NCBI RefSeq assembly: GCF_964030655.1
Contig: NZ_OZ034915.1
Location: 1,364,001 to 1,428,000 of the forward strand
Length of the DNA stretch: 64,000 bases
Source of the DNA: Spiroplasma endosymbiont of Poecilobothrus nobilitatus
GTDB taxonomy: Bacteria > Bacillota_I > Bacilli_A > Mycoplasmatales > Mycoplasmataceae
Direction: 5' to 3'
Every line of letters begins with the position of its first letter. Positions within the stretch are counted from its first letter, which is position 1. Positions 3,164 through 24,379 of the stretch are shown here, one piece after another. The position numbers and the translations under genes were made by a program. Under the pieces are notes generated by a model. That model was given only the letters and a program-made list of their open reading frames with translations. It did no database searches and was not told where the DNA came from.

Positions 3164-3466
3164 TTATTTTACTAAAACCTCAAAATAATATATACTACCT
3201 AAATTTTTGACAATATTTAATCCTAAGTTATTTTGTAAACCCAGCATAACATTGCTACGAATCGATGGCATTAATCCATCATCGTAACCTCAAAGACTAT
3301 TTAAGCCTCATTTGTTATTAGTCATAATTGATTGTGGTTTTAATAAAAGACCTAAATTTTTTGCTTCTTTTCATCATATATTAGTTGAAATCAAAATAAA
3401 ACTTGTAGTAATAGGAAAAATAAATATCATTAAATAAAATAATTTTCGCAATTTTATTTTCTCCAT
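3164..3466 (-). pseudogene. N-terminal fragment of secreted protein (copy of 19872-21035)
   Basis: From the ATG at 3466 the frame encodes a signal-like N-terminus (MEKIKLRKLFYLMIFIF) and about 90 residues nearly identical to the start of the 387-residue protein at 19872-21035. Identity stops at about 3197 and the reading frame ends shortly after at 3164. It is a truncated duplicate left by a segmental duplication that also covers the adjoining terminator and permease 3' end. Confidence 0.8.
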
Positions 3467-3551
3467 TTTATATTTTTTGGTTTATAGGTTCAAATTCAAT
3501 TATATTAAAAAAACAAGGTAACAACTAAAACTTCAAAAATAACTTAAAAAT

Positions 3552-3580
3552 AAAAAATCTAAGTTTTGCTTAGATTTTTT
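3552..3580 (-). terminator. Rho-independent terminator after giant permease
   Basis: A 12-bp A/T-capped stem (AAAAAATCTAAG / CTTAGATTTTTT) with a short loop and T-run lies just after the permease stop on the minus strand. An identical hairpin is at 21130-21158 in the duplicated segment. Confidence 0.75.
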
Positions 3581-3592
3581 ATTTTGTTAGGT

Positions 3593-6500
3593 TTATACTT
3601 CGTTTGCATTAACCCGCTCTTGAATACTCATATGATTAATTTTATAAGTTGAAATTCAATATGTTATTAAATAGATTCCTGCCATTAAAATAAAAGTAAT
3701 TGGAATTGTAATTCATGGGAATCCAAATGAAATAATTACTTTAGCAATTGCAATAAACCCATAAACACCTAGTCATAATATTAATCACATTATCCCAACA
3801 CCTAAAATTCATGATAGAAAAGCAAACGGAGTAAATATTCCTAATGTTAAACTATTAATTTCACGATTTGAATATCCTAAAGCTTTCATCACAGCCATAA
3901 ATTTTAAGAAATAATTAACAAATGATTCTGTCATAATATATACAATAATAATAGCAGTTATAATCGTAATAACAACAAAGATAATTGATAAGATACTTGA
4001 AATTCAAGCAAGTTTTTTAATAACTTGCGATTTAATAATTAAATAATCTGTTCCTCCAACCCCACTAGTTAATTGGCCATTCATAAAATCATTCATTGAA
4101 TAGGAACCATCTGAGGAAGAAAGATTAAATCGTGTTATTTGATCAACTTGATCATGATATTTACTAAACTTACCATTAAATCATAACATTGGATTATCAT
4201 ATTTGTTATAATATAGTTCACTAGAACTTGTATTAAAACCAAGAATTTTATTAGCAAGAACTTGATTTACATACGCTCTCGGAACATCATATGAATTTTG
4301 AATTCCAACAACTTTATATTTAATATTTTTAGTAATTTTCCCAATTTTTAATAATCCTTGGCGTAATGCTTCTCGATATCAATTAGTTGGAAATCCCGTT
4401 GTTAAATCACCTGTGCCATTAATTTCTTTATCAAATTTATTATCAAAAGGATGAATAACATAATAATCGCCTTCTTCAGCTTCTTCTTTAGTGACTACTC
4501 TCTGATCAACGGGGCTATTAAGGTCTAACAGCCCAGGCAAACGACGTCCTGTTGTTGCAGAAATCGTTGAATTTTGAAATTCACCTTGTTTAAAAGCATT
4601 AACTGGTAATTTTAAAACAAAATTTTTAATATTATAATAATCTTGAATTTTACCATTTTTATTTTCAAAACCAACACGTGTTTTGTTTCCAATTGTTAAT
4701 TTTGTTAAATCAAGGGTAAACGGATTAAGATTATCATCAGACGAACCACCTGGTAACTCATATGACCATTCTGCTTGGTCAACAGTACAATGAAGTGCAT
4801 CATCACAATACTGTAACTGCTGAACACTAGTAGTAGTTTCAATTATTTTATCTAACAATAAATTATATTTACTTTCTGCGGATTTATTTAGAACCATTGG
4901 AATTAAATCTGTCCCAATATTTAAATTTTTACTATTATCTAAAATTTTTTTAACTGTATGATTTGGAAAAATAATTGTTTTATTATTTACATTAATTCCA
5001 TATGTTGGAAGAATAAAACTTGAATCTGATATATTTGTTGTATATCCGGTATAAACATCTTCATTTTTTGAATTATAAGTTGAAGTTCCGAAAGTAAAAT
5101 TAAATTGTAATTTAGCCAAATCATCTTTTAACCACATTGCTCGAATTTTACCTGGCATAATATCACTTGTCGCATATTGCACACAATAAGTCCAACGGCC
5201 AATAATATTTGGGTCTGTTGGATGAACTGGTGGTTTACCAAAAGCACGTGGCATTATTGAACATAATAAAGTATCAATTTTATTTCGAATATCAACATTT
5301 TCACCATAACGTTTATACATATCATAAAAAGTACCAATTGATAAACTTGTTCCTTTTCCAACCATAAAATTAAAAATAATCATATTATTTAATTGTTGTG
5401 CATATAAATGAGCATTTTTAGCATTAATATCATTTTTTGTTGATAGCCATTTTCCATTATATAAATAATCACTTACTAAATAATTTTTAATTAATGGATA
5501 TGCTGCCTCAGATGAAAAACCAGAACCATTTCAGTCATACATTTCATAGCGACTAATAGGAATATTACCAATAACATTTGTATATTCATACTCGTTATTA
5601 TAATTTAAATTGGCATAATAATCTTTACTAAATTTATTGATTGCTGTTGGAATTAAAGTTGCTAATGTTAAAGATAAACTAGCAACAAAAAATGTTAAGA
5701 AAAACCAACCAATTTTTTTTATTGAAACAGCCATCATCACAAAACGAAATTTTGTTGTAAATTTTTTAAAATGAAAAATATTACTAATAGAATAAACTAA
5801 TTTTGAAGTTTTAATATTTTTATTCGGATTTAATAAATCTAATGGGCTAATTATTAATTGCCGAATTGCTGTTACTAAAATTGACAAACTACTAACAAGA
5901 CCAATAATTCCAAAACAAATTGCAAATGTAATTAACGAAAATGAAAAGTTAACTGGAATAACAAAATAACTATTGAAAACACTCATAATAGGTAATTGTA
6001 AAAATACACCAATAATTCATCCAACCGGAACTCCAATTCCAGTTACTACAATCGCATGAGCTAAATAAGAACTAGCAATTGTTAGTCCACTATAACCATT
6101 TGCTTTTAAAATTCCATTTTCAATTTTTTGTTGATTAATAATTTTTTTAATTAAAATTACTAATGTAAAAATTAAAATAATTAAGAAAATAACACATAAA
6201 ATAATTGTAATCGTACGATAAAATTTAATTGTAGTTCCTAACAAAGAATAACGTAAGTAAACTAACTTTGTTTCATCGCGGCTTTGTAATGGGGCATTTT
6301 TATCACTTGGATTATTTAAAATTCAAAAATCATCTGCTAAATATTTTTTAAAATTTTCAAAGGCTGTACCTTTATTTTCCGGTAAACCGACATAATTAAT
6401 ATATAATGTAGAATTTTCTTCAATATCAGTGTTAGCAGCAATAGACTCACTACGATAAACTTTTTCATAAACATAAATAATACCATCTGTTTTTGGATCT

Positions 6501-7840
6501 GGAAAAACATCAGTATCATAAATTGTTGGATAAATATTAGCTGGATCTCCACCAATAGCACCAACAAATAAATTTGAATTTTCACCAATTGTAAGTTGGT
6601 CTCCTACTTTTAATTTTTGACTACGCCCAAATTGCGGCGTAATAACAACATACACATCATTAATTGAATTAGTTGGATCAAAGGAATCATATTTTTTAAT
6701 AAATTTTAATTTATCATCCGATAATAATTGTGTTCAATTAATAATTTTATATTTTAAATTTGTTATTAAATCTCAATATGCATATTGTTCACGTAACTGA
6801 AATGAAAAGTTTGAAGCTTTGGCAACTAATGCATAATAGGCTTTTGTCAAACCATAAGGACCATAAGGTTGATTCCGAAAACTATTATTCTTATTATTTT
6901 GATTATAAAAATCATTAACACTAAAAACAGCATTTTCAATATTATTATTATAACCAACATCAAGATTATTATTAATAGTTGGTGAATAATAAAGACTAAT
7001 TTTTGTTAAAGGATGTGATGTATCTTTTACTAAAAAACTTAAATCACCATTTAATTTTTCCTCAAATATTCTATTTTTAATGCTAGCTTTAGTAGGGATT
7101 TTATCTACACTTCCTCGTAAATCAACATCTTTTTTTCATTTTGTTATACCATTATTAACAAAATCAATAACAGCATCTTTTAATTTTGTTTCATCTGTTA
7201 TACCTGGATATTTCTTATTTAAATATGCAATAATTAAATTTACTGTATTTTGTGAAATATCACTATGCGTAAAATTATTCATAAATTCTTCAATCAAAGG
7301 TAAATTATTTTGATTAAAAAGATAACCTTTCTGATCATATAATTGTCCAATTACAGAAGCTTGAAAATATTCACTATTAAAGTTGAAACGATATAAACCA
7401 TTATTTAAAAAATTTAAAGCACTTTTATCAAGAACAGTAAAAATAATATTACTTACTTTATTTGTTTTAGAATCAAAAGTAAATTTTATTTCAACATTAT
7501 TATCCAATGCTTTTAATGCGCCATCTTCACCTAAATGAGCATAAGGCAATGTTCACTGTTCCCCATTAACATCAGTAATTAAATGATAATCATTGCTAAA
7601 AGCATACCATGGAGTAATTGTTTCTACATTTTGTCCTGTTTTCTTTTTACTGTCAAATCTTAATAAATAATCATAAGAAAAAGTTCCTTCCCCCATAAAT
7701 GAATATGCATTAGTTAAACATGTATTAACAATTCACGAAGAAGTTGTTAATAATGTTAAAAGCGCAGCTAATATTATAAAAATAATTAACTGTGCTTTTT
7801 GCTTAAACATACTTTTTAATGTTTGTAAAAACAGCAACAT
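3593..7840 (-). CDS. Giant FtsX-like permease (MacB/LolC type), 1415 aa
   Basis: This is a large integral membrane permease of the FtsX superfamily, which normally pairs with a cytoplasmic ABC ATPase to move lipoproteins, peptides or drugs, or to transmit signals across the membrane. One transmembrane helix lies at about residues 12-34, followed by a long extracellular domain to about 530. A first FtsX domain follows (about 533-690, with NGILKANGYSG), then another helix, a second long extracellular domain (about 715-1265) and a C-terminal FtsX domain (KFMAVMKALGYSNREI). AGGAGA precedes the ATG at 7840. The gene is 29 bp after a lipoprotein gene, suggesting one transcript. Length is about twice that of a typical MacB. 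Its substrate and ATPase are unknown. UGA codons are read as Trp; no break is seen. Confidence 0.85.
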
Positions 7841-7869: not shown

Positions 7870-10194
7870 TTAATAATAACGAGTATTGTTATAGTATCAA
7901 ACAAAATCACTTAATAAATATGAATTTTTTGTTAAATCATCTTTAATCCCTGGATTATATAAGAAACGAGCTTGATTATTAAATTGAACAACATAACTAT
8001 ATTTAATTTTGTCACTATTTGTTAAATATTCATTACCCTCTCCATCATAATCAACTCAGTCTTGATTGTTTCATGTTTCGCCCTCTGGTGCAATATTATG
8101 ACGTTGTTTTGGGTCTTTTTTTTGTTCAACATATGAAGGAGAATTCCCTGAAGCGGGATCAGTATATCCTAATGGTTTTTTATGACGTTCTAATTTAGTT
8201 GAAGCATCTTTTGGACCATAGTAATCTAATTGATAACGAATACCCGTTACAGAACCATTAGTTACAATTGCCCCTAATTTTGAACCATCTACGCCAGTTC
8301 CTGATGCTGTAATATATCATTTCCGATCTAAGAAGATATTATCAAATCAATCTTCTGCCATTATTTTATTAACTTGACTTGTTAATTCACCAATATAACC
8401 ATTTTGTAAATCTAATATTTGTGTAATAAATTTATGCATTAATTCATGATCAGGATAAGTGTTATTCCCTCCATGCGCTCAAATATTAATGATATCAAAT
8501 AATGACCCTTGTTTATATTGACCTGTTTGTTCATCAAAACCATAACTATTTAAGATAAAATTAGCATATTTTCTATTAGGATCAGCTGCCATTAAGTCAT
8601 CTTTAAAGCCATTTTTATTCGGTCCTTCATTATAAACATTATCAATTGTTTTAACATTATCAATATTTAAATTATAATGCCCTTCACTATCACTAGTGTA
8701 AAATCAATTTGCTAATCCTGCAATTCCTTTTAATAAATTAAACAAATCAAAGTTTGGTGCGTTTAACATTTGCAATAATGTTCGAATTAAACCAACAACA
8801 CTATCTTCAGCAAAATTCCCAATTAAGCCTTGAAATTTTAAAAGACCCTCATAAACTGTGTTTGACATTATGCGGTTAAATTTTTGAACATCAAAGTTTG
8901 AACCTTCTTTTGATAAAGCTTCTGTAAATCAATTTTCTAAAACAGAATACCATTTTAAAAAGGCATTTTTATGTTCTTTTTTATCACTTGTTAGATCTAA
9001 ATATTGCTTCTCCCCTGACATAATCACGGTTAGAGATTTTGTCACAACTGGACTGTTAAAAATATCATAAAGTTTCATGATTTGAATTGTTTTATCAGGG
9101 TTATCTAATTCACCATCACTTTGTTTTTCAACATTAATAACTGTTTTTTCAATAGTATCACGACTAAATATTTCTAATAATGGACTATTTGGTTTAACAT
9201 TACCTGAGCTATCAAAAAACTGACTTTTTATTTGTTTTAAAATAAAAAACGGTGCTGCTAAAAAAATTCCTGCAGTTTTTTCACCAGAACGATTATTTTG
9301 AATAAATGGTAATAATTGTGCTAATGAATATAAAACTGGTAATTCTAATCCTGGCCCAAATTGACCTAACATAGTAATTGCTTCATCAAAATATTTTAAA
9401 CCAAATAAATCATATAATGAACTTGACTGGTTCGCCACAGCCTTTCCAAATTTAATTTCTTCACCACCATCTTTATAAGACAAAATTGACTTTGTTGGCG
9501 GTGTTGAAAGTGAATTATGATATAAAATATTTGATACATAAGGACCCGATGATGAGTCATAATAATTACTTCATTCAGCCGTTCTGTTAATATAATTAAT
9601 AACTGATTCTGATTTTTGTGACAATGTATTTGCTAAAGCTCCAGTTCCATATTGAGCTCATGCTAAATTTGGATTTGCAACAAAATCTGTGTAACGCCCT
9701 GTTGCATATGTTTTATTGCTAGGATGTCCTTGGTTAGCTTCTGTATTTCACTTTGAAAAATCAGTCATTGCAGCAATTGATGACATTAAATTATAAGTAT
9801 TTCGCTCTGGTTGATAATTATTATCTGTTGCTTTTCAAGGATTATAATAAAGATTATTTATTTTTTTATATTCTTCAACATAATCTTTAATTTTAATTTC
9901 TTTCCCGCTTTTAGTAGTAAAGACTCCTTTTAAATTTCTTCCAACATTGTTTAAAAAATACTGTAATGTTGGAAACCCATAAGTATTCATATTTTCATGA
10001 CGACTAGCAATTAAAATTTTAGCAATTGTACTAGTATATTTGACTAAATTTCGAATTGTTGGGTCGATTTTATTAAGTTCACTATCAAAATAATTATTAT
10101 TTTGACTATTTTTTCCTTTTGCACAAGAAACTACCCCTAACATACTTGCTGACATTAAAGTTGTAGATCCTAATATAGAAAGTAATTTTTTCAT
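7870..10194 (-). CDS. Large lipoprotein, 774 aa, partner of giant permease
   Basis: The N-terminus is a lipoprotein signal peptide: basic MKKLL, a hydrophobic stretch, then the lipobox GVVSC with the lipidated Cys near residue 24. The mature part is hydrophilic and predicted to be outside the membrane; I recognise no domain. The ATG at 10194 was chosen over the GTG at 10203 because AGGAG lies at the right distance only from the ATG. It lies 29 bp upstream of the 1415-residue FtsX-like permease, so it may be its substrate-binding or accessory subunit; that is inferred from position only. Tyr and Asn are abundant, and the protein ends in VWYYNNTRYY. Confidence 0.8.
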
Positions 10195-10262
10195 TTCCTT
10201 CACTCCTTTTATATTTATTAAATTTTTATAAAAATAATTAATTTAAAAGTCAGCAGATAACA

Positions 10263-11123
10263 TTAAATTATCATTACCTGCTTATAACCATTAATAAAAA
10301 TTGTTGTATATTTAATTGGCTTATCCATACTCAAACAATTATTTTTAATTGATAAAACAAAATATTTTAAATGATCATTGTTTTTTTTATGATTTTGTGT
10401 TTTAGCATTATTTTTATTTATTAAAACAACATTTCAAAAATAAATTCAAAGTAAAATAATTATAAAAATATTTTTAAAAATTATTGATAATTTAATATCA
10501 TTTATATTTTCAATAAAATATAAATTTAAAATTAAACACAATAATAACAAAATAAAACCAAACGATAATCTCCGAAAAATTTGTTTTACTTCCATTACGC
10601 TATTATTAATTACAATAGTACTAATTAAACTTCCATAACCAATCATTCATAAAATTAAATAAAATGAGTTGTTTTTTGTTTTTAAAAATGCATTAAAAAT
10701 AAAATTAAAAATAACTGGAGCAAAAATAATTAAAAAGAAAATAGCAATTAATTTATTAAATAAAACAATAAAATTAAAATATTTTGTCTTTGTTGTGCTA
10801 ACAAAGATAGCTAATAATAAAAAAATAAAATTTAATAAATTAATTGTTGATCTTTCTATTCATCCAAAAGAAAATTGAATAAAAATATTAAGAATAAGCA
10901 AAATTGATAAATTGCTAATAAAAGTAAAAATAAAGCTAATAATTGCAAATTTAGTAAAGGTGTTATTAATATTTTTAATAGATTTTGTTTTTAAAAAACT
11001 AATGCGGATTAAAATACTAATAATGAAAAAAATAAAAATTCAAAAAAAAATTGATGAAAAGATATTATTTATAAAGTTAATAAATCTATTAAAAGTGATA
11101 TTAGATAAAAAATTTATTAACAT
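10263..11123 (-). CDS. Polytopic membrane protein, 286 aa, unknown function
   Basis: From the ATG at 11123 (GGAGCG upstream) the product has roughly six or seven very hydrophobic segments rich in Ile, Phe and Leu, with basic residues between them (for example after residues 45, 115 and 150). The C-terminal 60 residues are more polar. No family motif is recognised. It is 68 bp upstream of the large lipoprotein gene and could belong to the same operon as the FtsX-like permease. Base composition is extremely AT-rich, with long A and T runs. Confidence 0.65.
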
Positions 11124-11159
11124 TTTTTCCGCTCCTATATTTTTACATAGTAATATTTT

Positions 11160-11207
11160 ACAAAAAAAAAAAAAAAAAACAAAGGGCTATTTTTGCTTTT
11201 TTTAAGA
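11160..11207 (-). terminator. Probable terminator of rplJL with long homopolymer
   Basis: Downstream of rplL a short hairpin (AAAGCAAAAATAGCCCTTT region) is followed by an 18-base A run, a T run in the minus-strand RNA. The stem is weak; the homopolymer is the stronger signal. Confidence 0.4.
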
Positions 11208-12351: not shown

Positions 12352-12390
12352 ATAAAAAACATTATTTTAAAAAATTTTATTAATCTTGTT

Positions 12391-12789
12391 TTACTTTTGA
12401 CTTATTTTCTTATACCGATATTTATTCCATAACCATGTACCCAAGCAATATAGTCCAACTGCACCAGAAGAACTTAAAAAAACATATCCTAAAATTTCAA
12501 CAGCCAAAGTGTCTTTTTGTTTTACTACAGGCGGAACAACAAGTTCTTCGTAAACTTGAAAAATAAAAGAACCTTCATTATTTTTAATAAAAATATTATC
12601 ATTTTGGTCAATAGTAATTGTATGGACAGAAGTTCCGAAAATATTAGTTTTTTCAACCTGTTTTGTTTTATTTTTAAAAAAATACACCCCAGCAAGTACT
12701 GTTGAATAATAAACATTATTATTTTTGTCAACAGTAATAGATAACGCTGTTTTATCCAATAAACTAGAGTGCGCCCATTTTAGTAAGTA
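12391..12789 (-). pseudogene. C-terminal fragment of membrane-anchored repeat protein
   Basis: The open frame has no start codon and runs to a stop at 12391. It carries two repeats of a beta-propeller-like kind (SITVDKNNNVYYST and TITIDQNDNIFIKN), a Pro-containing linker, and a C-terminal transmembrane helix (about 20 residues after LAVEILGYV) with a basic tail. The same repeat (ALTVDQKNNIYY) occurs in the N-terminal fragment at 23824-24225. The two may be halves of one gene separated by IS elements, or paralogues. Function unknown; a surface location is inferred. Confidence 0.7.
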
Positions 12790-12918: not shown

Positions 12919-12947
12919 TGGAATGGCAACACTTTTTAGGAAACTTT

Positions 12948-13793
12948 TTATATAGACATTTGTTTTCTAAAAGTAACTGGAGATAAATAATTTAAACTGC
13001 CATGAATTCGAATATTGTTATATCAATGCACAAAATAAAAAAGTTGGTATTTTAATTGTGTTAAATTTTTAAATTTTTTACCCTTAATAAATTCAGTTTT
13101 AAAAGTTTTGTAAGTTGTTTCAGCCACAGCATTATCATAGGGGCATCCTTTATTGCTTAATGATCTTTTAATATTAAAAGTTATTAAAATTTCATCAATG
13201 ATTTTATTTTTAAACTCATTACCACGATCAGTATGAAATAGAGTTATTTGATTTAATGGTAGTGTTATTTTATGAAAAGATTGTTGGACCAGTTCGGCTG
13301 TTTTATTCGGCCCAGCACTATAACCAATTATTTCACGATTAAACAAGTCAATTAATAAACAAATATAATGTCATTTAGCGCCAACTTGAACATATGTTAA
13401 ATCACTAACAATAACTTCATTAGGTTTTTTGTTGTTAAATTGACGATTTAAAATATTATTAATTTGGTCATTATTGACTGTTGTTTTATGATTATGATAT
13501 TTTAATTTGGTGTATTTAGAAACCAAATTATTTTTGATCATAAAGAATCTGATTTTTCGCCGCAATAAGATGATATCTTTTCTGTTTAAAATAACTTTAA
13601 TTTTGCGAGCCCCATAAATTTTGCGACTTTTATTAAAGGCACTGATAACTTCTTGTTCATAATTATTAACTTGCTTGTTAATACATTTATTAGTTTGATA
13701 ATAATACGTTGATTTTGATAAACCCAAAATCTTACATATTTTTCTTGCTGAATATTTTGTTTTGTTGTTATTAATTATTGTTATTTTTTGGCC
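12948..13793 (-). CDS. IS3 transposase OrfB, copy 1
   Basis: About 281 residues, expected to be made by -1 frameshifting from orfA at the A6 run. It has an HTH_21-like region ([16 protein letters not shown]) and the DDE integrase core: [11 protein letters not shown] (first Asp), [12 protein letters not shown] (second Asp) and [19 protein letters not shown] (Glu). The frame is intact, but the orfA of this copy has a stop, so fusion transposase cannot be made from it. Confidence 0.85.
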
Positions 13794-14059
13794 ATTATCA
13801 GTGCGGCTTGCTTTAAAATGTCATTTTCCATTTTCAAGTCTTTAAGTTCTTTTCGTAAAGTTATTATTTCATTTTCTTCTAGTGTGCGATTGTCTTTTGC
13901 TTTAAATGAACCAGAATTATTATAATTTTTAACTCAACTATAAATAGTTGGTTTTGGTAAATTATATTCTTACCCTAGATTAATAACACTTTTACCATTT
14001 TTATATAGCATGACAATTTGTTTTTTAAATTCTTCAGAGTATGAAGTTTTATTTCCCAT
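13781..14059 (-). pseudogene. IS3 OrfA, copy 1, nonsense mutation
   Basis: OrfA is normally 92 residues: a helix-turn-helix ([17 protein letters not shown]) and a leucine-zipper-like end ([17 protein letters not shown]). Here the Gln codon after NLG has become TAA at about codon 31. Confidence 0.8.
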
Positions 14060-14140
14060 TTTTATATTCCTTCTTTCTTAATAATTTTATTTAATTTTGA
14101 AGTCTATATAATTATGGTCCTAATAATTGTAGCCCATCCA

Positions 14141-14526
14141 AATATTAGGAGTACCTGTCAAAGATAAAAAATAATTATTATTTAAAAATGGTAAAATTGC
14201 AAAAAGAAAAGTAAAAATAATAATCGTATATAAAATTGTGGCAAAGCAAGAAATAAAAACACCCATCATTCAACAAACTATTATTGGCAGAAAAATATTA
14301 ATAGCAATCATTGTATTGGTTTCGCCAGTTTTTGGTGGCACAAAAAATGGGATTAATCCTTGGGCAATAATAACCAAAATTGCGAAAACACCGCCAATAA
14401 CAACTTGATAATAAATTGAAAAACGAGCAAAAGAATTACGCACTAAACCTCATGTAAAAATATAAATGATAGAAAAATAATTATAAATAATAAATATACA
14501 AAAATAATATTTAAAATACTACTCAC
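14141..14526 (-). pseudogene. Membrane protein fragment cut by IS3
   Basis: On the minus strand a strongly hydrophobic frame runs into the IS3 end at 14140: three or four membrane segments with LVRNSFARFSIYYQ and IPFFVPPKTGET between them. The GTG at 14526 is in a different frame from most of the product, so there is either a frameshift near 14460 or a non-ATG start. The 3' part is missing. No family is recognised. Confidence 0.5.
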
Positions 14527-14600
14527 TTATTTTCATCTCTTTTAACAAACCTTGTACTTTTTTTATTATATCATTCCTTTTAAAAATATTTTTGAATTAA

Positions 14601-14672
14601 AAAAGAAACTAAAATTCTCATAAATAATTTCTTGAATCTAATAATTTATTTATGACAAAGCAAGTTTCTTTT
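14601..14672 (-). terminator. Terminator of ssrA
   Basis: A long hairpin with outer arms AAAAGAAACT / AGTTTCTTTT and inner arms TCATAAATAA / TTATTTATGA, followed on the minus strand by a T run, 34 bp after the tmRNA 3' end. Confidence 0.65.
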
Positions 14673-14705
14673 AATTTCTACCTTATTTTTAATAAAAATA
14701 AAAAA

Positions 14706-15128
14706 TGGTGGAGATGGCGGGAATTGAACCCGCGTCCACAAATAACATTCTAATATCTTCTACAGTTTAGTCTAATCATCTTTTTTTATTATTTAATAAT
14801 AGGATTAGACAACTAATTAAATAACTAGATAATAAGACTTTCAAAATTCTAACATTATCAATTAGAATTTCTATTAGATTAAGACTTGAGATACGATAAT
14901 AGTTAATAATCTACAATTAACTACTATTACGGCTAGCAATCCTCTAACAGCGAGGAATTAAGCTACTAACATTGATCCCGCTAATTGATTGTTCATTATA
15001 AAAGCTGGCATTTCAATTTTGTCTCTTTTTTGTTTTTTGTTTGCGTTTCTTCAAACCTAGTAGCATTATAGTCTGCTAAACTACTGCCAATATTAGTAGA
15101 TCATTCCTGTCGAAACCGGAACATCCCC
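14706..15128 (-). ncRNA. ssrA: Transfer-messenger RNA (tmRNA)
   Basis: tmRNA rescues stalled ribosomes and tags the incomplete protein for degradation. The 423-nt minus-strand RNA begins GGGGATG and ends CATCTCCACCA, which pair as a 7-bp acceptor stem with encoded CCA. The T arm reads GCGGGTTCAATTCCCGC. The 5' part carries the usual TTCCGGTTTCGACAGG. A 28-codon tag reading frame lies inside. A promoter with TATAAT is immediately upstream and a hairpin terminator follows. Confidence 0.97.
14958..15044 (-). other. tmRNA tag reading frame
   Basis: The inferred resume codon GCA at 15044 starts a 28-residue tag beginning ANKKQKRDKIEMPAF and ending MLVA, then TAA at 14958. It resembles the tags I recall for other spiroplasmas, with a small hydrophobic C-terminus suited to Lon/FtsH-type proteases. 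Confidence 0.8.
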
Positions 15129-15136
15129 ATGCAATA

Positions 15137-15165
15137 ATTATACTCTTAAATTATTAAATAGTAAA
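15137..15165 (-). promoter_or_regulatory. ssrA promoter
   Basis: TTTACT (15160-15165), a 17-bp spacer and a consensus TATAAT (15137-15142) lie about 9 bp before the mature tmRNA 5' end. Confidence 0.8.
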
Positions 15166-15171
15166 TAATAA

Positions 15172-16443
15172 CTATTTAATACATTTTTTTTGAAATAATT
15201 GCTTAAAATGATATTCATAACTAATTTCTTTTCCAATTTTTGAACCTAAAGTAATTCGAATTAAAGCATAGTAATCCATCATTAAACTAAAACTACTAAA
15301 AAATAAGGTAAATAGTAAGAAAAGTCCCATACCTAGAATATAATCCTTTTGTAATCAAAATAATAATCGTTCAACAATTAAACTAGGTTTTGTAATTAAA
15401 TTATTATTTTTTAAATTTAAATATTCAACATAATAATTTAAACTACTAAAAAAATAACTAAATAATCCAAGACTAGTAATTAGCATTATAAGTTTTAAAA
15501 AATTGACTGTAATTGCACTATCATTTTTATTAATCCAATTTATTAAGCATATAATACTTTCCAACAAAAACTCAATTATAAAACAAACAATAGTAAAGAT
15601 ACTTAAAATATAAATAATGTTATTCGGGTTTAACGAATAATTTGTTCCATTATAATTATAAACAATCCATTCTTTGATGTTTCATTGAAAAATACCGGAT
15701 AAAACAATATAAAAAGTCAAAAGAATTTGAACGGTTGTAACAACAATTAAAGTAATATTAAGATTCTTTTCAAACACTAACCACGTTCAGAACTTTTGAA
15801 AATCTAATTTTTTTGTTAAGAAAAAACTAATTTTTTTGGGTGAATAATATTTCAATCGTAATATTCTCATTTGTAAAATTTGTAAATTATTATTATTTTC
15901 TTGAATTTTACATTTAAAGAAAGTTGTAATTTTATTATAAAATTTACTATTTGTTTTACAAATTAAATATTTATCTAGAAACTGAAACAAACTAATATTG
16001 TTAAAAATAGACACTTTAACTTGGTTATCATTCAAGTCATACTCACTAAAAATACTTTTTAATGTTTGGTGATTAAAATAAATAATTGTTTTTCATTGAT
16101 ATGAATAAGTTATTATAAAGAATAAAATAAAAGTAAAAATACTAGTAGCTGTTGTAATAGCATAAAAAATCTTTCGTGACAATAATCTTCATTCTGGCAA
16201 ATAATTATTGCTAAAAGTAAAATATGATGTTAAAAATAATAAAAACAATTGTAATACATTCAGAATTAAACCAATATTAATAATAACTAATAAAAAATAA
16301 AATAATTTGCTGGCGATTAAACTTTCACTATTTTTTTTATTTTTAAAATGTTTTAATAAATAAATTCCTTCTCAACTACTACCAAAAAGAAGAAATAAAA
16401 TATTTAAAACAATAAAATATTTTAAAGATACTAAATCTGTCAT
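15172..16443 (-). CDS. Multi-pass membrane protein, 423 aa, unknown function
   Basis: The ATG at 16443 follows GGAAGGAG. The product has about eight hydrophobic segments, with a soluble basic stretch around residues 130-215 (FFKCKIQENNNNLQILQMRI). It ends QLFQKKCIK; its TAG stop lies inside a hairpin just upstream of the ssrA promoter. It is the last gene of a four-gene minus-strand run whose other members are secreted or lipoproteins, 14 bp after the previous gene. It may anchor or export those proteins, but this is inference from position. No conserved family is recognised. Confidence 0.7.
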
Positions 16444-16457
16444 ACTTTTCTCCTTCC

Positions 16458-17642
16458 TTAAGTAATTTTAAAAGAAACATGTGTACCAACAGTTCCGGTT
16501 GCATGATTAATTTTAAGATAATTTTTATTACTACTTTTAAATCAGGCAAAAACATATGGTAATCCCCCATGGTCAGCACTCTTTCATAAATTTTTTAGTT
16601 GAGTTTTTGGTGGCCACAAATCTAAGACATTTGGCTGTGCGCCTTTTTTCAAAACAATATTTACATCAGTTGCTTGCATAAAATGTGAATTATGAACATG
16701 TGATGATCACTTAATTAAATAATCAGTTACATCATTAATAACTTCCGCAATAGTAGTTGTTCCAGCATATGTTTTGTTAGTAACGGGTTTCCAATCAATA
16801 TTTCTTCAGTCTTTAGCATTAAAATCATTACTGTCAATCGAAACATTTCAAACTGATAAGAACTCTGGTTTTTTATAAAAACTAAATCCTTTACTTTCTA
16901 GGATTACCTTATAATTACTTTCAAAAACTGTGGGATTAAATATTAGCATTGCTCTTGATGCATAAAATTTAATAAATTTACTACTGTCTTTTTTGACATT
17001 AATTTTCAAATTAAAGAATCCAAATGGTAACGGGTTATTGTCATTTCACATTTTTTTATTTCTATAATATGTTACAATTTCCTCGTATCCTTCTTCCGTT
17101 TGAAAAATATTATTAATATTTTGTACAAATCCTGCTATTAATTTAGCATTATCAAATGGCGCTGGATTATTAGAATAAAATAAGACACTATTTTTAAAAA
17201 TATTTAATTCAGTTAAATCAACATTAGTATTAATTGTAATTCATTTTTCATTTTGGTAATGACCATAATTATTTGGTGTAATATGAATTGAAAAATAAGT
17301 AATTGGTAATAAGTTTCGTATAGCACTAAAGTCAATTAAATAATTTGGATTAGGTGTCGTATGGTAACCATAATAAATATCAACATTAATTTTAAAAAGA
17401 TCAATTTCTCTAAAATTAATTTGAATAATTTTAAGAACAGTACTCCGCAAAGTTTGAAACCCACCAAGTTCACTACCTAACATTTGATCAACTGTTCACG
17501 AATAATTTTGAAATACTGTCTCATCAATTTGTGTTAAATCAAAATTAATATTCTCTTCTTGTGTAGTTTTACAAGCAATAAGAGGACTAATATTTCCAAA
17601 TAAGATAGTTCCTACTAATAATGACTCTAATAACTTTTTCAT
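16458..17642 (-). CDS. Lipoprotein, 394 aa, VDIYYG family
   Basis: The signal peptide MKKLLESLLVGTILF is followed by the lipobox LIAC, with Cys near residue 24. The mature protein contains INVDIYYGYH followed by NNYGHY, a pattern shared with the protein at 19872-21035 (LRVDIYYGH...FYGH), so the two appear to be distant paralogues in one operon. The spacing is 9 bp from the upstream gene and 14 bp to the next. Surface-exposed lipoprotein is likely; function is unknown. No break in frame under code 4. Confidence 0.75.
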
Positions 17643-17651
17643 AATCCTCTT

Positions 17652-19856
17652 TTATAATGAATTAACATACATAAATAATTCATAAACTTGTTCTCCTATT
17701 GTTTTTCCATAATTTAAACTTGGTTGTTCAAACACAACATCATCTAATGTAAATTGGTTTGGATATCACTTATATTTATTATCTCTTGTTGTTGAAGCAG
17801 GAAAACCAATTGAATTTAGGACTCGATTTAAATCATATTTTTTATCTGGATATATTTCCATTAACATCATCATTTTATGAACTATTTCCATTCCATCAAT
17901 ATAATTTTTAAAGCGAACACTATAACGCGGACCATTAATATTTCCAACATAAACTAAATTATCATCTCCCGATTCAAATTGACCATTCATTTCTTTTTTA
18001 GTATAATAATCATCTCGATATAAATCATATGACCATCTTGCATAACCATTTGTCCCTAATTTATAAGCCATTAAAGGTCCCCATACTTGTTCACTATTAT
18101 CAGATTGAATATACGCTGCTGGAAAATTATTTCAAGAAGTATAAATCATAGTTGCATTCCCAAATGTTTTACGACGAAGAATATTACTTCGTAATTTATA
18201 AATATTAATATTATTAAATTTTTCTACTATTTCACGGTATTGCAAAATCATTTGGTCATATTTATTAACAAAAATATTTTGAATATCATCTTCATCAAAT
18301 GGATTATAGCGAAAGCGTCAACCAGCAAAAATACTAGATTTAATAAGATTATAAGGGTCATTTTCAGCCACATTTTTCATTGTTAATTCATTAGTTTTAT
18401 CTGCTAATTCATCAAACGATTCATATAAAGTAATTTGTTTACCATTTGGTGTTAAGTATTCTGGTTTGTTTCGAATTGAATTTCAGTGATTTGATAATGC
18501 TTTAATAAATTTACTATGAATTGTTTTTAAATAAGCACCAAAGTTTTTCCCAGGCATACCATTACTTGATTTTACTAATTCAGCATTAAATGTTCGTTGA
18601 GGACCCTTTTTAGCCCCATTTTTAAGGTAAAAAAAGGTAAAGGTTCCTGGTTCCATTGCTGAAAACATAAACTCCGTAAATCCTAATTGAGCAGCAACTT
18701 TTAAGTATTCATCAAATGCATTAAAATCAAATTCTCATTCTCAATCTGGATCATTAAAAACAACATTTAAATCACTACTTTTAATATAATCTTCGTATTC
18801 TTCATCAGTTCATCCTTCTGATGATTTATTTAATTTTCCTACTCATTGAATTAATTGATAATTTCATCCGGGACCATATAAATAAAATGTATTAGATTTT
18901 TTTAATGCTTGTAAATGTGCTAATAAATATAGCCGCATTTTTGGGGATAAATAACTTGGTAAATTATTATCAAAAAGACCAATTTTGTCATCAAGTTCTT
19001 TTACACTTGCTCTTTTCTGTCTTAAATTATCACCAGTATCAATATATTTCATACCATTTGAAGGAAATGATGTCGCACTAAAACCAAATCGTTCATGCAC
19101 TGGTTTATTTGAATCATCAGTTTTTCAAAGATAATTTTTAATTTCAACAATAAACTTACGTTCAATACTAGTTTTAACTTGACCATTAAAACGAAAACTT
19201 AATTTTATCGTAAAATTTTGAATTCCTGGCTTTGCTTGTGACCCAATAAAAAGACTAATTCAAAGCGGATGAACATCATATGTTAATTCAGACAATGTAT
19301 TTTTTCCTAGCGCATCAGGCATATATTGTACTCCCGGGTAAATATAACGATTAGAACTTGCTGCATTTGGAAAAGCTTTAATATAAGTTAAAAAAACAAT
19401 CTCACTAATAATCGCTGGGTCTTTATTATCATTTATAATTGATACTTGTAAATCATTATATTTAGTAATATCTTCCTTATTTAATAAAATTAACTGCGTA
19501 TTAAGATGCTGATTTCTTCATGTTGTTAAGCGCGGACGATCATTTGTACACTTCAATAAATCTTTGCGATTTCCATAAAAAAATGGATTGCCGTTTTTAT
19601 CTTCATTATAAGCACTATAAGTAAATTTTGAATCACCAAAAAAAGTATGGAAATATGAATTATCATCTGCTTGTGGATTTTGATTATTACCACAACCATA
19701 CTGAAAATTAAACTGGTTATCATAACGACCACCACTGCAACCACCAGGATAATTACCTTCAAAACGACTACAACTAACAACCATCATCACAAAAGGAGGA
19801 ATTAAAAAAACAACTAATAAAATTTGATTCATATTCTTAAACGATATTTTTTTCAT
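17652..19856 (-). CDS. Large lipoprotein, 734 aa, unknown function
   Basis: The N-terminus MKKISFKNMNQILLVVF leads into a hydrophobic segment and the lipobox MVVSC. A Gly/Asn/Asp-rich stretch follows (NYPGGCSGGRYDNQF) with extra Cys residues, then a long soluble domain with many aromatic residues. The frame is continuous through several UGA-Trp codons to TAA at 17652. It lies in the middle of the secreted-protein operon, 9 bp before the 394-residue lipoprotein gene. Surface exposure is inferred; I recognise no enzyme or adhesin motif. Confidence 0.75.
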
Positions 19857-19871
19857 TTGTTTATTCCTCTC

Positions 19872-21035
19872 TTAAACAATAAATCCTAAATGAACACCTG
19901 GTAAAGTGCTTAAATCTAGTGAGGTATTTTTTGCATTAATTAATTCTAATCATACCCAATGCTTTTTCTTCCCGCCCGAAGAAAAGGTATATAGTTTATC
20001 TAATGTTGTTTCCTTTTCAAGTAAATTGGGATCAGAATATCCATTTTTACGAAATTGTAATTCAAAAACACTCATTGCTAAATTATAATGGTATATTGTA
20101 TCAATTGCCTTAATAACAAATAATTTTATATCATAATATAAACTAGCTAAGGTATTATTTAAAGTGACATTTTTATCTAAAATTGCATAATCAAAATTAT
20201 GATTTTTAAAATCTTTACTTGTAATCTTAATAGTTGCTGCTGTATTCATTGCAAAAGTTTCCCCAGGAAGTTTAAATAATGATGCTTGCAATCGTTCTGG
20301 AATATATTTAAATAAATCATTATTAATTGTTAACATATTATCTTTCTCAGAAATAAATTTATTACTTAATTTTATAAAAAAACTAATATCCTTATTTAAT
20401 GTCATTTGTCCTGGTTGTAATTCCATCCCAGCTGAAATATCTAATCCCATTTTTTGAAATTGTTTATTAAAATTATTAAGAATTACTTGGTTACTTAATA
20501 GTTTATTTCAATTATCAACAAGTTTATATTCACTGTCAATTTGTCCTTTTGAATTATCAAATTTAATAAATTGATTGTTAATAAAATTTCAAGTTGGGCG
20601 ATAATCAAACTGTAAAAAACTATGCCCATAAAATTCACTTTTTTCTGTTTCAAAAATTCCAACAGTAAACCAAAAAATATAATTAGTATTAGTAAAATCA
20701 GTAAAATTAATTGTTTTTGCATTATAAAAATTATTATCATCAACATGACCATAATAAATATCAACTCTTAAATTTTTGACAATATTTAATCCTAAGTTAT
20801 TTTGTAAACCCAGCATAACATTGCTACGAATCGATGGCATTAATCCATCATCGTAACCCCAAAGACTATTTAAGCCTCATTTGTTATTAGTCATAATTGA
20901 TTGTGGTTTTAATAAAAGGCCTAAATTTTTTGTTTCTTTTCATCATATATTAGTTGAAATCAAACTAAAACTTGTAGTAATAGGAAAAATAAATATCATT
21001 AAATAAAATAATTTTCGCAATTTTATTTTCTCCAT
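19872..21035 (-). CDS. Secreted protein, 387 aa, VDIYYG family
   Basis: The ATG at 21035 has GGAGAAAAT overlapping it. The N-terminus (KLRKLFYLMIFIFPITTSFS) looks like a cleavable signal without a clear lipobox Cys. LRVDIYYGHVDD and SEFYGHSFLQF resemble motifs in the 394-residue lipoprotein of the same operon. It is the first intact gene of the run; a duplicated terminator and a broken permease end lie upstream. Its first 90 codons are duplicated at 3197-3466. Function unknown. Confidence 0.72.
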
Positions 21036-21129
21036 TTTATATTTTTTGGTTTATAGGTTCAAATTCAATTATATTAAAAAAAAAAAAAAAACAAGGTAAC
21101 AACTAAAACTTCAAAAATAACTTAAAAAT

Positions 21130-21158
21130 AAAAAATCTAAGTTTTGCTTAGATTTTTT
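21130..21158 (-). terminator. Duplicated permease terminator
   Basis: Same hairpin as at 3552-3580 (AAAAATCTAAG / CTTAGATTTTT), lying between the permease remnant and the secreted-protein operon. Confidence 0.65.
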
Positions 21159-21170
21159 ATTTTGTTAGGT

Positions 21171-21538
21171 TTATACTTCGTTTGCATTAACCTGCTCTTG
21201 AATACTCATATGATTAATTTTATAAGTTGAAATTCAATATGTTATTAAATATATTCCTGCCATTAAAATAAAAGTAATTGGAATCGTAATTCATGGGAAT
21301 CCAAATGAAATAATTACTTTAGCAATTGCAATAAACCCCATAAACACCTAGTCATAATATTAATCACATTATCCCAACACCTAAAATTCATGATAGAAAA
21401 GCAAACGGAGTAAATATTCCTAATGTTAAACTATTAATTTCACGATTTTAATATCCTAAAGCTTTCATCACAGCCATAAATTTTAAGAAATAATTAACAA
21501 ATGATTCTGTCATAATATATACAATAATAATAGCAGTT
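21171..21538 (-). pseudogene. 3' remnant of FtsX-like permease (copy of 3593-3960)
   Basis: This is nearly identical to the last 120 codons of the giant permease at 3593. An extra C near 21340 shifts the frame, and a G-to-T change near 21450 turns a Ser codon into TAA. It is cut at 21538, where the tail of another IS3 element begins. It is the other half of the segmental duplication. Confidence 0.85.
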
Positions 21539-21666
21539 TGGAATGGTAAGGGTTTTTTGGACAAATTTTATGTAGAATAATAATTTCTGTATTGCACTGG
21601 TGTTAAATAATTTAGTTTGCTATTAATTCGAATATTATTGTACCAATTAATGTAATCAAATAATTC
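21539..21666 (-). mobile_element. Tail of a third IS3-family element
   Basis: Starts TGGAATGGTAAGGGTTTTTT. On the minus strand it encodes an OrfB C-terminus (FDYINWYNNIRINSKLNYL, then TPVQYRN) clearly different from family B. The rest is missing because IS family A copy 1 abuts it at 21667. Confidence 0.75.
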
Positions 21667-22601
21667 CTTTAATTTTGTAGAAAACTCTTGATATTTATAA
21701 AATATACCTAAAATTAGGTATATTCTTAATATAAGAGGTGAATAATTAATGGAAAAAATAATTGAAGAATTAATAAATAGTTTAACAGATGATCAATTTT
21801 TATAATTTCATGAAAAAGTCAAAAAAGAAGCAGAATTAATTAAAAAACAAAAACGCTTAAATGAAATTGATCAAAAATTTAGGGATAAAGGTATTAAATG
21901 TCCTAATTGTCAATCTTTTTATTGTGTTAAAAATGGTCATAATCCTGAAGGAAAACAAAAATATTTATGCAAAAAATGTCGTGCTAGTTTTGATGCTTTT
22001 CGTGATCATTTTACGTATTGAAGTCATTTAAATTATGAACAGTGAAATTTATTGATTCAAATTTCATTATTAGGCCAATCTAGTAAAATGATTTCCCACT
22101 TTATTAAAACATCACCGAAAAACGCTTGATATAATCGCCAAAAAATAATGAAATCAAAACAATTAGAAAACACCCAATTAAAATTTAAAACGTTGAATGG
22201 CCAAATTAAAATCGATGAAACATTTATTAAAGAAATCCACAAAGGGTAATTTTAAAGATAAATTTGATAAAAGAAAAATTCATCTTGATTCATTTTCAAC
22301 CAACACTAAATGTTGTATTCAAATGGCTGTTGATAGCAATAATAATATTTATGTTAAATCAACCAACACAAAACGATTACAAAAACAGTTAATTATTGAA
22401 AATATTAATAAACAATTAATCAAAGAAAATTCAATTATTATTTCTGACATGCAACCATTATATTTATTAGTAGCAAAACAAACAAATTCTATTTTATTAG
22501 CAACTAAAACTAGTACAAATCCTGATGCTAGTTATCGGAAGTTAAATAAAATTAGTAAATTACAATCAAATCTTAAAGAATCCTTAATTCATTATCATTG
22601 G
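21667..22601 (+). mobile_element. IS1595-like element A, copy 1, 3' truncated
   Basis: The left terminal repeat CTTTAATTTTGTAGAAAACT is intact; the 3' end is replaced by IS3 copy 2 at 22602. The 8 bp before it (AATAATTC) have no partner here, so the right junction was lost. Confidence 0.85.
21749..22601 (+). pseudogene. IS1595-like transposase A1, broken
   Basis: In-frame TAA at 21803 (Glu codon in other copies) and a +1 G near 22245 after KEIHKG, plus loss of the 3' end. The zinc-ribbon CPNCQSFYCV...CKKC and QIDETFI-type motifs are still readable. Confidence 0.85.
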
Positions 22602-22682
22602 TGGATAGGCTACAATTATTAGGGCCATAATTATATATACTTCAAAATTAGATAAAATTATTAAGAAAGAAGGAATATAAAA

Positions 22683-22961
22683 ATGGGAAATAAAACTTCA
22701 TACTCTGAAGAATTTAAAAAACAAATTGTCATGCTATATAAAAATGGTAAAAGTGTTATTAATCTAGGGCAAGAATATAATTTATCAAAACCAACTATTT
22801 ATAGTTGAGTTAAAAATTATAATAATTATGGTTCATTTAAAGCAAAAGACAATCGCACACTAGAAGAAAATGAAATAATAACTTTACGAAAAGAACTTAA
22901 AGACTTGAAAATGGAAAATGACATTTTAAAGCAAGCCGCACTGATAATGGCCAAAAAATAA
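22683..22961 (+). CDS. IS3 OrfA, copy 2, intact
   Basis: A 92-residue DNA-binding protein with a helix-turn-helix ([29 protein letters not shown]) and a leucine-zipper-like coil at about residues 66-84, where it can oligomerise. GAAGGAATAT precedes the ATG. It ends in MAKK at an A6 run that is a likely -1 slippery site leading into OrfB, as in other IS3-family elements. This is the only copy in the window with an open orfA and orfB together. Confidence 0.88.
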
Positions 22962-23794
22962 CAATAATTAATAACAACAAAACAAAATATTCAGTAAGAA
23001 AAATATGTAAGATTTTTGGTTTATCAAAATCAACGTATTATTATCAAACTAATAAATGTATTAACAAGCGAATTAATAATTATGAACAAGAAATTATCAG
23101 TGCCTTTAATAAAAGTCGCAAAATTTATGGGGCTCGCAAAATTAAAGTTATTTTAAACATAAAAGATATCATCTTATCGCGGCGAAAAATCAGATTCTTT
23201 ATGATCAAAAATAATTTGGTTTCTAAATACACCAAATTAAAATATCATAATCATAAAACAACAGTCAATAATGACCAAATTAATAATATTTTAAATCGTC
23301 AATTTAACAACAAAAAACCTAATGAAGTTATTGTTAGTGATTTAACATATGTTCAAGTTGGCGCTAAATGACATTATATTTGTTTATTAATTGACTTGTT
23401 TAATCGTGAAATAATTGGTTATAGTGCTGGGCCGAATAAAACAGCCGAACTGGTCCAACAAGATTTTCATAAAATAACACGACCATTAAATCAAATAACT
23501 CTATTTCATACTGATCGTGGTAATGAGTTTAAAAATAAAATCATTGATGAAATTTTAATAACTTTTAATATTAAAAGATCATTAAGCAATAAAGGCTGCC
23601 CTTATGATAATGCTGTGGCTGAAACAACTTACAAAACTTTTAAAACTGAATTTATTAAGGGTAAAAAATTTAAAAATTTAACACAATTAAAATACGAACT
23701 TTTTGATTTTGTGCATTGATATAACAATATTAGAATTCATGGCAGTTTAAATTATTTATCTCCAGTTACTTTTAGAAAACAAATGTCTATATAA
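22949..23794 (+). CDS. IS3 transposase OrfB, copy 2, intact
   Basis: An integrase-type DDE transposase of about 281 residues, expected as an OrfAB fusion through -1 frameshifting. Helical region [15 protein letters not shown] precedes the catalytic core: [23 protein letters not shown] and [15 protein letters not shown] supply D, D and E. The C-terminus ([19 protein letters not shown]) matches the IS150 group. There is no stop or frameshift under code 4, so this copy may be active. Confidence 0.88.
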
Positions 23795-23823
23795 AAAGTG
23801 TCATAAAAAGTGTTGCCATTCCA

Positions 23824-24225
23824 ATTATCGACTAATTCATCATTTAAACCCTCAATTTTAACAATTGTTCCATTATTACCATCATAAATATATATTTTAT
23901 GATCTTCGTTTACATAATAAATATTATTTTTTTGATCAACTGTTAAAGCAATAACATTATCATCAATCCCATTAATTTTTTTTGCTTTTGTTGTATCATT
24001 AGGCAAAAAATAAATTCATCGTGAAGTTCCAAAATAAACTATATTATTAGAAATTTTTTTTGCATTACGAGAAATATTGTCAAGTCCTTCAATTCTTGTT
24101 TGAATATATTGTTTTTCATTAAAACTAAATGGAGTGTTACGACTATGATTAGCAACTTCACTAAAGGTTAGATTTTGAACAAAAATAGAACTTGCAATAA
24201 TGCAGAAAGTATATATCTTTTTCAT
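23824..24225 (-). pseudogene. N-terminal half of secreted repeat protein
   Basis: ATG at 24225; signal peptide MKKIYTFCIIASSIFV, then repeats of a propeller-like type (NIVYFGTSRWIYFLP, VIALTVDQKNNIYYV, KIYIYDGNNGTIVKI). The frame runs into IS3 copy 2 at 23823. The fragment at 12391-12789 carries similar repeats plus a C-terminal membrane anchor. The upstream region is itself split by IS A copy 2. Confidence 0.75.
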
Positions 24226-24379
24226 TGTTAATTTTCCCCACTTCCCTAGCAATTAATTTTATTTATCATAAATTAGGCTTTTAATTTTGTAGAAAACTCT
24301 TGATGAAATAAAAAAAATCATAAATATGATAACTTTAAAAGAAAATTATATAAACTTTTAATATTGTTATTTAACTTTT

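What the first reader, a model, noticed from the sequence alone, without database searches (positions are those of the whole stretch)
15172..21035. Operon of one membrane protein and three secreted proteins with a shared VDIYYG motif
Four genes 9-15 bp apart encode exported proteins of no known family. Two share a VDIYYG...YGH pattern, pointing to an old duplication. By the duplication above, the set once sat next to the giant permease, so all may form one surface system.
Basis: partly seen in the sequence, partly recalled or inferred. Interest (0 to 1): 0.6.

Follow-up and report, generated by a model that had tools for sequence, protein, structure and literature searches.

The report
Switchable surface sugar-cutting operon in Spiroplasma
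Four neighbouring genes of an arthropod-associated Spiroplasma make a membrane-anchored enzyme that probably clips N-acetylgalactosamine from sugar chains, together with three helper proteins, and they are read from a promoter holding a run of 16 T's that looks built to switch the set on and off at random.

Summary
The four genes are real and sit where stated (gaps 15, 9 and 14 bp). "No known family" is wrong for the largest: it is a GH123 (beta-N-acetylgalactosaminidase) lipoprotein over Pfam's cut-off, with the catalytic Asp-Glu pair conserved in every relative examined. The two VDIYYG proteins are full-length paralogs with no known family; the fourth gene encodes a roughly 7-TM protein. The order VDIYYG-GH123-VDIYYG-TM is intact, under purifying selection, in six of 14 genomes of the genus and in one genome of another genus; it is decayed in seven others. 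The giant FtsX permease did lie next to the set in the window's subclade, but a strong terminator hairpin separates them and it is unlinked in other lineages. Not in the finding: a poly(T) tract (T16) fills the -35/-10 spacer of the operon's promoter. It recurs at orthologous operons in two genera, at the permease operon, and at a second lipoprotein-GH123-FtsX operon. A/T runs of 10-14 are almost absent, whereas a 15-18 class exists, flanked by TTG (Fisher p about 6e-15). I read this as a phase-variable surface glycosidase module. Enzyme activity, substrate and ON/OFF switching are inferred, not shown.

The parts
21068..21094 (-). Promoter of the operon: TTGTTT (-35-like), T16 tract in the spacer (21076-21091), TATAAT (-10, 21068-21073)
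   Evidence: T16-T17 tract at the same place in G023, G016, G032 and G029, T9 in G024
21130..21157 (-). Terminator-like hairpin between the permease remnant and the operon promoter; identical hairpin at 3552-3579 after the intact permease
   Evidence: -15 kcal/mol, z -7.8; for coordinates
19872..21035 (-). VDIYYG protein 1 (387 aa; likely start TTG at 21020), exported, no lipobox
17652..19856 (-). GH123 lipoprotein (734 aa), predicted beta-N-acetylgalactosaminidase
18408..18413 (-). Codons for D482-E483, the GH123 catalytic Asp-Glu pair
   Evidence: motif defined in PMC11087588
16458..17642 (-). VDIYYG protein 2 (394 aa), lipoprotein (LIAC), paralog of protein 1
15172..16443 (-). About 7-TM membrane protein (423 aa), no known family
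21174..21543 (-). Remnant of the 3' end of the FtsX permease, just upstream of the operon
   Evidence: (88-93% to P0005)
3164..3466 (-). Truncated second copy of the start of VDIYYG protein 1, behind the intact permease; its promoter has only T7 (3499-3516)
3593..7840 (-). Intact FtsX-like giant permease (1415 aa); associated, not shown to be part of the unit
7870..10203 (-). Lipoprotein upstream of the permease (777 aa), MOLPALP-like but below the curated cut-off
10263..11182 (-). TM protein (286 aa) and its promoter with a T18 tract (11155-11182): head of the lipoprotein-permease operon

Best explanation
The four genes are one operon that puts a GH123 beta-N-acetylgalactosaminidase on the outer face of the wall-less cell, together with two paralogous exported VDIYYG proteins and one multi-spanning membrane protein. 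Most likely the enzyme removes terminal beta-GalNAc from glycans of the arthropod host (for example GalNAc-beta1,4-GlcNAc on N-glycans and arthro-series glycolipids), and the VDIYYG pair and the TM protein bind, present or anchor it. Expression is probably phase-variable: slippage in the T16 tract changes the -35/-10 distance and so turns the operon on or off, as in the poly(A) promoters of the Mycoplasma hyorhinis vlp genes. Shown here: GH123 homology with the catalytic pair, export signals, conserved gene order, purifying selection, and a tract of non-random length in a promoter spacer at orthologous operons. Inferred: enzyme activity, host substrate, physical complex, switching.
For: GH123: Pfam 1.9e-19 over the cut-off, all 8 members of the alignment, PDB GH123 enzymes at 3e-15, profile-profile 99.8% over 518 columns with the DE pair aligned, DE in all 17 Spiroplasmataceae relatives. 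Unit: same gene order and short gaps in six genomes; fourfold synteny in another genus, G032, scored against 40 other TM proteins and about 80 other exported or soluble proteins as background; dN/dS 0.10-0.37. Switch: T16/T17/T9/T16/T17/T16 in the promoter spacer of orthologous operons in two genera; in 400 kb of random sample no A/T runs of 10-14 but five of 15-17, expected 0.006; TTG within 6 nt 5' of the tract in 67.5% against 11-13% for shorter runs, -10-like box in 52.5% against 17%. Substrate: arthropods carry LacdiNAc and arthro-series glycans (PMC7943597, PMC3606520); in G032 and G030 the GH123 neighbourhood also holds a GH85 endoglycosidase and ABC exporter genes.
Against: No activity or expression data. 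GH123 enzymes differ in specificity and mode. The VDIYYG proteins and the TM protein have no detectable fold or family; AlphaFold models failed for lack of an admissible alignment (pLDDT 29 and 31). Tract lengths come from single consensus assemblies, and homopolymer calls can be wrong. The tract is missing at the operon in G018, G015 and G026, and the tract counts include orthologs, so the tests are not fully independent. The spacer in the window is 15 by my reading, short of the ideal 17.
Confidence: 0.55

Rival explanations
1. One surface machine with the giant FtsX permease: the permease and its lipoprotein partner move or assemble the GH123 and VDIYYG proteins, and the operons belong together functionally.
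For: Adjacent in G015 and ancestrally in G000/G018; a separate operon in G022/G023/G024 joins a lipoprotein, a GH123-like protein, a small TM protein and an FtsX permease; poly(T) promoters on both operons.
Against: Terminator between permease and operon; unlinked in G016, G019, G026 and G014; the permease persists where the operon is decayed or absent, and P0005-related matches are in 60 of 60 genomes.
Confidence: 0.25
2. The enzyme trims the cell's own surface glycolipids or polysaccharide rather than host glycans.
For: Other GH123 loci lie next to ABC-2 exporter genes and acyltransferases (G014, G032), which can belong to envelope glycan export.
Against: No glycosyltransferase or polysaccharide synthesis gene was recognised in the operon or beside it in g1 (by eye, not a systematic scan); GH85 neighbours in G032/G030 act on N-glycans, which bacteria of this group are not known to make (general knowledge).
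Confidence: 0.2
3. Nutrient scavenging: GalNAc released at the surface is imported and burned through NagA/NagB.
For: nagA and nagB are both intact in five of the six genomes with an intact operon.
Against: In the window's own genome the operon is intact while nagA and nagB are both broken; G019 and G014 keep both genes but have lost the operon. GalNAc needs further enzymes, not searched for.
Confidence: 0.15
4. The poly(T) tract is a fixed promoter element or an upstream-type AT stretch, not a switch.
For: AT-rich genomes; tract lengths differ by only one or two bases between most orthologs.
Against: Lengths 10-14 nearly absent while 15-18 is a discrete class, placed exactly in the spacer; T9 in G024 and T7 in the truncated copy show length change; the vlp precedent (PMC10502178).
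Confidence: 0.25

Closest known systems
Glycoside hydrolase family 123 (CpNga123, BvGH123, NgaP; PF13320)
   Same: Catalytic domain, N-terminal domain match in 7 of 8 members, consecutive DE pair
   Different: Membrane-anchored mollicute lipoprotein, about 19% identical to canonical members in the profile alignment, locked in a four-gene operon with two VDIYYG proteins and a TM protein; substrate untested
Mycoplasma hyorhinis vlp poly(A) promoters and M. mycoides vmm TA-repeat spacer promoters
   Same: Simple repeat in the promoter region or spacer upstream of exported surface proteins
   Different: Poly(T) on the coding strand, T15-T18, heading multi-gene enzyme operons rather than single antigen genes; switching not shown
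FtsX-like permeases (PF02687)
   Same: Neighbouring protein P0005 and its relatives carry the domain
   Different: A neighbour in one subclade only; separate transcription unit; not a member of the operon
GH85 endo-beta-N-acetylglucosaminidases of Spiroplasma (an endo-beta-N-acetylglucosaminidase is discussed as a pathogenicity factor in the S. mirum paper, PMC9666726)
   Same: Predicted exported mollicute glycosidases; found near GH123 in G032 and G030
   Different: Different family and bond; no match in the window's genome

Membership tests
GH123 | Match to the catalytic domain model over the curated cut-off | tested here: met
   PF13320 70.6 bits against 23.1; all 8 members of A2
GH123 | Consecutive catalytic Asp-Glu pair at the right place | tested here: met
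   D482-E483 aligned with the DE of canonical GH123; definition in PMC11087588
GH123 | N-terminal beta-sandwich plus (beta/alpha)8 barrel | tested here: inconclusive
   PF22680 at E 1.9e-4 but under the cut-off for P0003, profile alignment 67-688 covers both domains; AlphaFold model unusable
GH123 | Hydrolysis of beta-GalNAc by substrate-assisted catalysis | not testable with these tools
   needs purified protein
Homopolymer-spacer phase-variable promoter (vlp type) | Homopolymer between -35 and -10 | tested here: met
   TTGTTT-T13-AA-TATAAT at 21068-21094, orthologs in G023, G016, G032, G029; promoter elements by consensus only
Homopolymer-spacer phase-variable promoter (vlp type) | Tract length differs between copies or relatives | tested here: met
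   T16, T17, T9, T16, T17, T16; T7 in the truncated copy
Homopolymer-spacer phase-variable promoter (vlp type) | Reversible length change within a clone linked to ON/OFF expression | not testable with these tools
   no reads or strains of one species at hand
Same transcription unit as the FtsX permease | No terminator between, conserved adjacency | tested here: not met
   hairpin at 21130-21157, z -7.8; unlinked in G016, G019, G026, G014
MOLPALP lipoprotein (P0007, neighbour) | TIGR04547 over the cut-off | tested here: not met
   33.7 bits against 65

The most novel reading that the evidence does not exclude
Spiroplasma runs a family of contingency promoters with a T15-T18 spacer that switch whole operons for surface glycosidases (GH123, GH85), FtsX permeases and lipoproteins, so that a population in its arthropod host is a mosaic of cells with different glycan-cutting surfaces.
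Probability: 0.45. Interest if true: 0.8.

Novelty: new variant of a known kind. Interest (0 to 1): 0.6.

Why it matters
The library search found no paper that names GH123 together with Spiroplasma. Of 24 papers holding both "Spiroplasma" and "phase variation", only the 12 listed were looked at, by title and abstract; they are about Mycoplasma, Ureaplasma-type or general topics, and none is about switching in Spiroplasma. The two Spiroplasma papers read for homopolymers discuss them as possible artefacts. If the reading is right, these wall-less symbionts and pathogens of insects, ticks, crustaceans and plants remodel beta-GalNAc glycans with a switchable surface enzyme. That would make host-glycan use and immune avoidance in Spiroplasma directly testable, and some tract indels usually put down to assembly error may be biology.

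Tried and rejected
AlphaFold on the VDIYYG pair and on GH123 plus one relative: pLDDT 29 and 31, no fold search made. PDB profile searches with the VDIYYG and TM families: chance-level hits only (E 0.38 and 0.17). Pfam hits to VDIYYG members (scavenger receptor, Cbm74, others) are below significance. The genome-contig scan returned one relative, in Mesoplasma grammopterae. The viral-contig scans returned no relatives. In an order-wide search the weak hits outside g1/G032 mostly cover only the signal-peptide end. G029 carries a diverged VDIYYG protein and two GH123 genes, but its 256-aa TM protein does not match the operon's TM protein (score 20.6, decoy level). NagA/NagB co-occurrence does not explain retention. 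The simple terminator scan missed the hairpin because it is AT-rich.

Full report
1. What is there. The window is bases 1364001-1428000 of a 1.43-Mb single-contig genome. Under genetic code 4, four minus-strand genes lie at 21035-19872, 19856-17652, 17642-16458 and 16443-15172 with gaps of 15, 9 and 14 bp. The first gene probably starts at a TTG (21020) behind GGAG, because TTG/GTG starts at that place are seen in several orthologs.

2. The largest gene is not an orphan. P0003 (734 aa, lipobox VVSC) matches Pfam GH123_cat at 1.9e-19, 70.6 bits against a cut-off of 23.1. Its alignment finds the solved GH123 enzymes in the PDB at 3e-15. A profile-profile comparison with canonical GH123 proteins from other Bacilli gives 99.8% over 518 columns and places D482-E483 on the catalytic Asp-Glu pair. 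That pair is conserved in all 17 Spiroplasmataceae relatives aligned, even the most diverged. The literature defines the consecutive DE motif as stabiliser and acid/base (PMC11087588), and mutation of it abolishes activity in a Bifidobacterium enzyme (PMC12856340). Activity here is inferred.

3. The other three. P0004 and P0002 (the VDIYYG proteins) are full-length paralogs (98.3%, 1.2e-14) without family or fold assignment. P0002 is a lipoprotein (LIAC); P0004 has no lipobox. P0001 has about seven hydrophobic segments and no family.

4. Conservation. The order VDIYYG-GH123-VDIYYG-TM is intact in G000, G018, G023, G024, G026 and G016, all ORFs open, dN/dS 0.10-0.37 in the pairs tested. It has decayed to fragments in G019, G015, G020, G017, G021, G022 and G014, and no piece was found in G025. 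In G032, a member of another genus, all four genes stand in the same order. The relatives of P0004 and GH123 are clear. The relative of P0002 scores 1.3e-9 and that of P0001 1.3e-4, the latter about twice the best of the other multi-span sequences (39.7 against 20.6). So the VDIYYG duplication predates the split of the two genera.

5. The permease. In G015 the permease ends about 15 bp before the first gene. In G018 only a phage/IS insertion separates them, at the tract itself. In G000 a permease remnant (21174-21543) precedes the operon and a truncated first gene (3164-3466) follows the intact permease. But a strong hairpin (z -7.8) lies between them, and in G016, G019, G026 and G014 the permease is far away. 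It is a neighbour, not a member. A second operon in G022/G023/G024 independently joins a lipoprotein, a GH123-like protein, a small TM protein and an FtsX permease, which keeps a functional link open.

6. The promoter. Upstream of the first gene lies TTGTTT, a T16 tract and TATAAT (21068-21094). At orthologous operons the tract is T17 (G023), T9 (G024), T16 (G016), T17 (G032) and T16 (G029). It is absent in G026 and G015 and displaced by an insertion in G018, where an orphan T17 remains beside the permease. Poly(T) tracts of T16-T18 also head the lipoprotein-permease operon (window 11155-11182; G018, G023, G024), the lipoprotein-GH123-FtsX operon (G022, G023, G024), and ABC and lipoprotein-ABC genes next to GH85 in G032. 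In 400 kb of sample taken at regular positions, A/T runs fall from 129 at length 8 to 9 at length 9 and none at 10-14, yet five of 15-17 exist where 0.006 are expected. Over all fetched sequence, tracts of 15 or more have TTG just upstream in 67.5% of cases (11-13% for T7-T9) and a -10-like box just downstream in 52.5% (17%), Fisher p 5.6e-15 and 4.5e-7. Orthologs are counted more than once, so these p-values overstate independence, and part of the sample was chosen around these operons. The design resembles the known poly(A) promoters of M. hyorhinis vlp genes (PMC10502178).

7. How it most likely works. A promoter that slips on or off drives an operon whose products sit on the cell surface. 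GH123 removes beta-GalNAc from nearby glycans, and the VDIYYG proteins and the TM protein bind or hold it. Arthropods carry the expected substrate in N-glycans and glycolipids (PMC7943597, PMC3606520). In G032 and G030 a GH85 endoglycosidase lies nearby, and GH85 occurs in 33 of 60 genomes of the family. Feeding on GalNAc through NagA/NagB is not a sufficient reason, since both genes are broken in the window's genome. Shown: homology, catalytic residues, export signals, gene order, selection, tract statistics. Inferred: activity, substrate, complex, switching.

8. Novelty. GH123 and slipping-spacer promoters are both known. The stable union with exported proteins of no known family, in wall-less arthropod-associated bacteria, under a poly(T) element shared by related surface operons, is a new variant of a known kind. 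I found no paper in the library on GH123 in Spiroplasma. The "Spiroplasma" plus "phase variation" search returned 24 papers, of which 12 were listed and judged from titles and abstracts only. Subscription papers are not searched.

Noticed in passing
window 12919-23823: Two IS3-type copies in inverted orientation (98%, 1222 bp) bound a 10.9-kb segment holding the operon; it sits inside a gene whose two halves lie at 12376-12764 and 23824-24279, with about 360 bp missing relative to G018. A composite-transposon-like move or duplication.
   Followed up: partly
window 14120-14443: Remnant (107 aa) of a 679-aa EAL-domain protein that is intact next to the operon in G018, G023 and G024.
   Followed up: no
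L097 11438-14212 and L096 11812-14586: 924-aa proteins next to a GH123 paralog; the L097 one matches the spiralin lipoprotein model (8e-49), followed by a membrane acyltransferase.
   Followed up: no
L142 3006-5870 and L191 4396-7254: GH85 lipoproteins in a run with ABC-2 exporter genes near GH123 in G032 and G030.
   Followed up: partly
G000 104868-107128: nagA and nagB are both broken in the window's genome.
   Followed up: no
L100 3006, 5027, 14171, 15253, 15868: Cluster of T16-T17 tracts, two heading paralogous 598-623-aa lipoprotein genes, in G034: candidate antigen-switching locus.
   Followed up: no
L082 12412-18063: In G018 a phage ORF1-like gene and an IS inserted at the poly(T)/-10 junction, splitting the operon from its tract.
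   Followed up: yes
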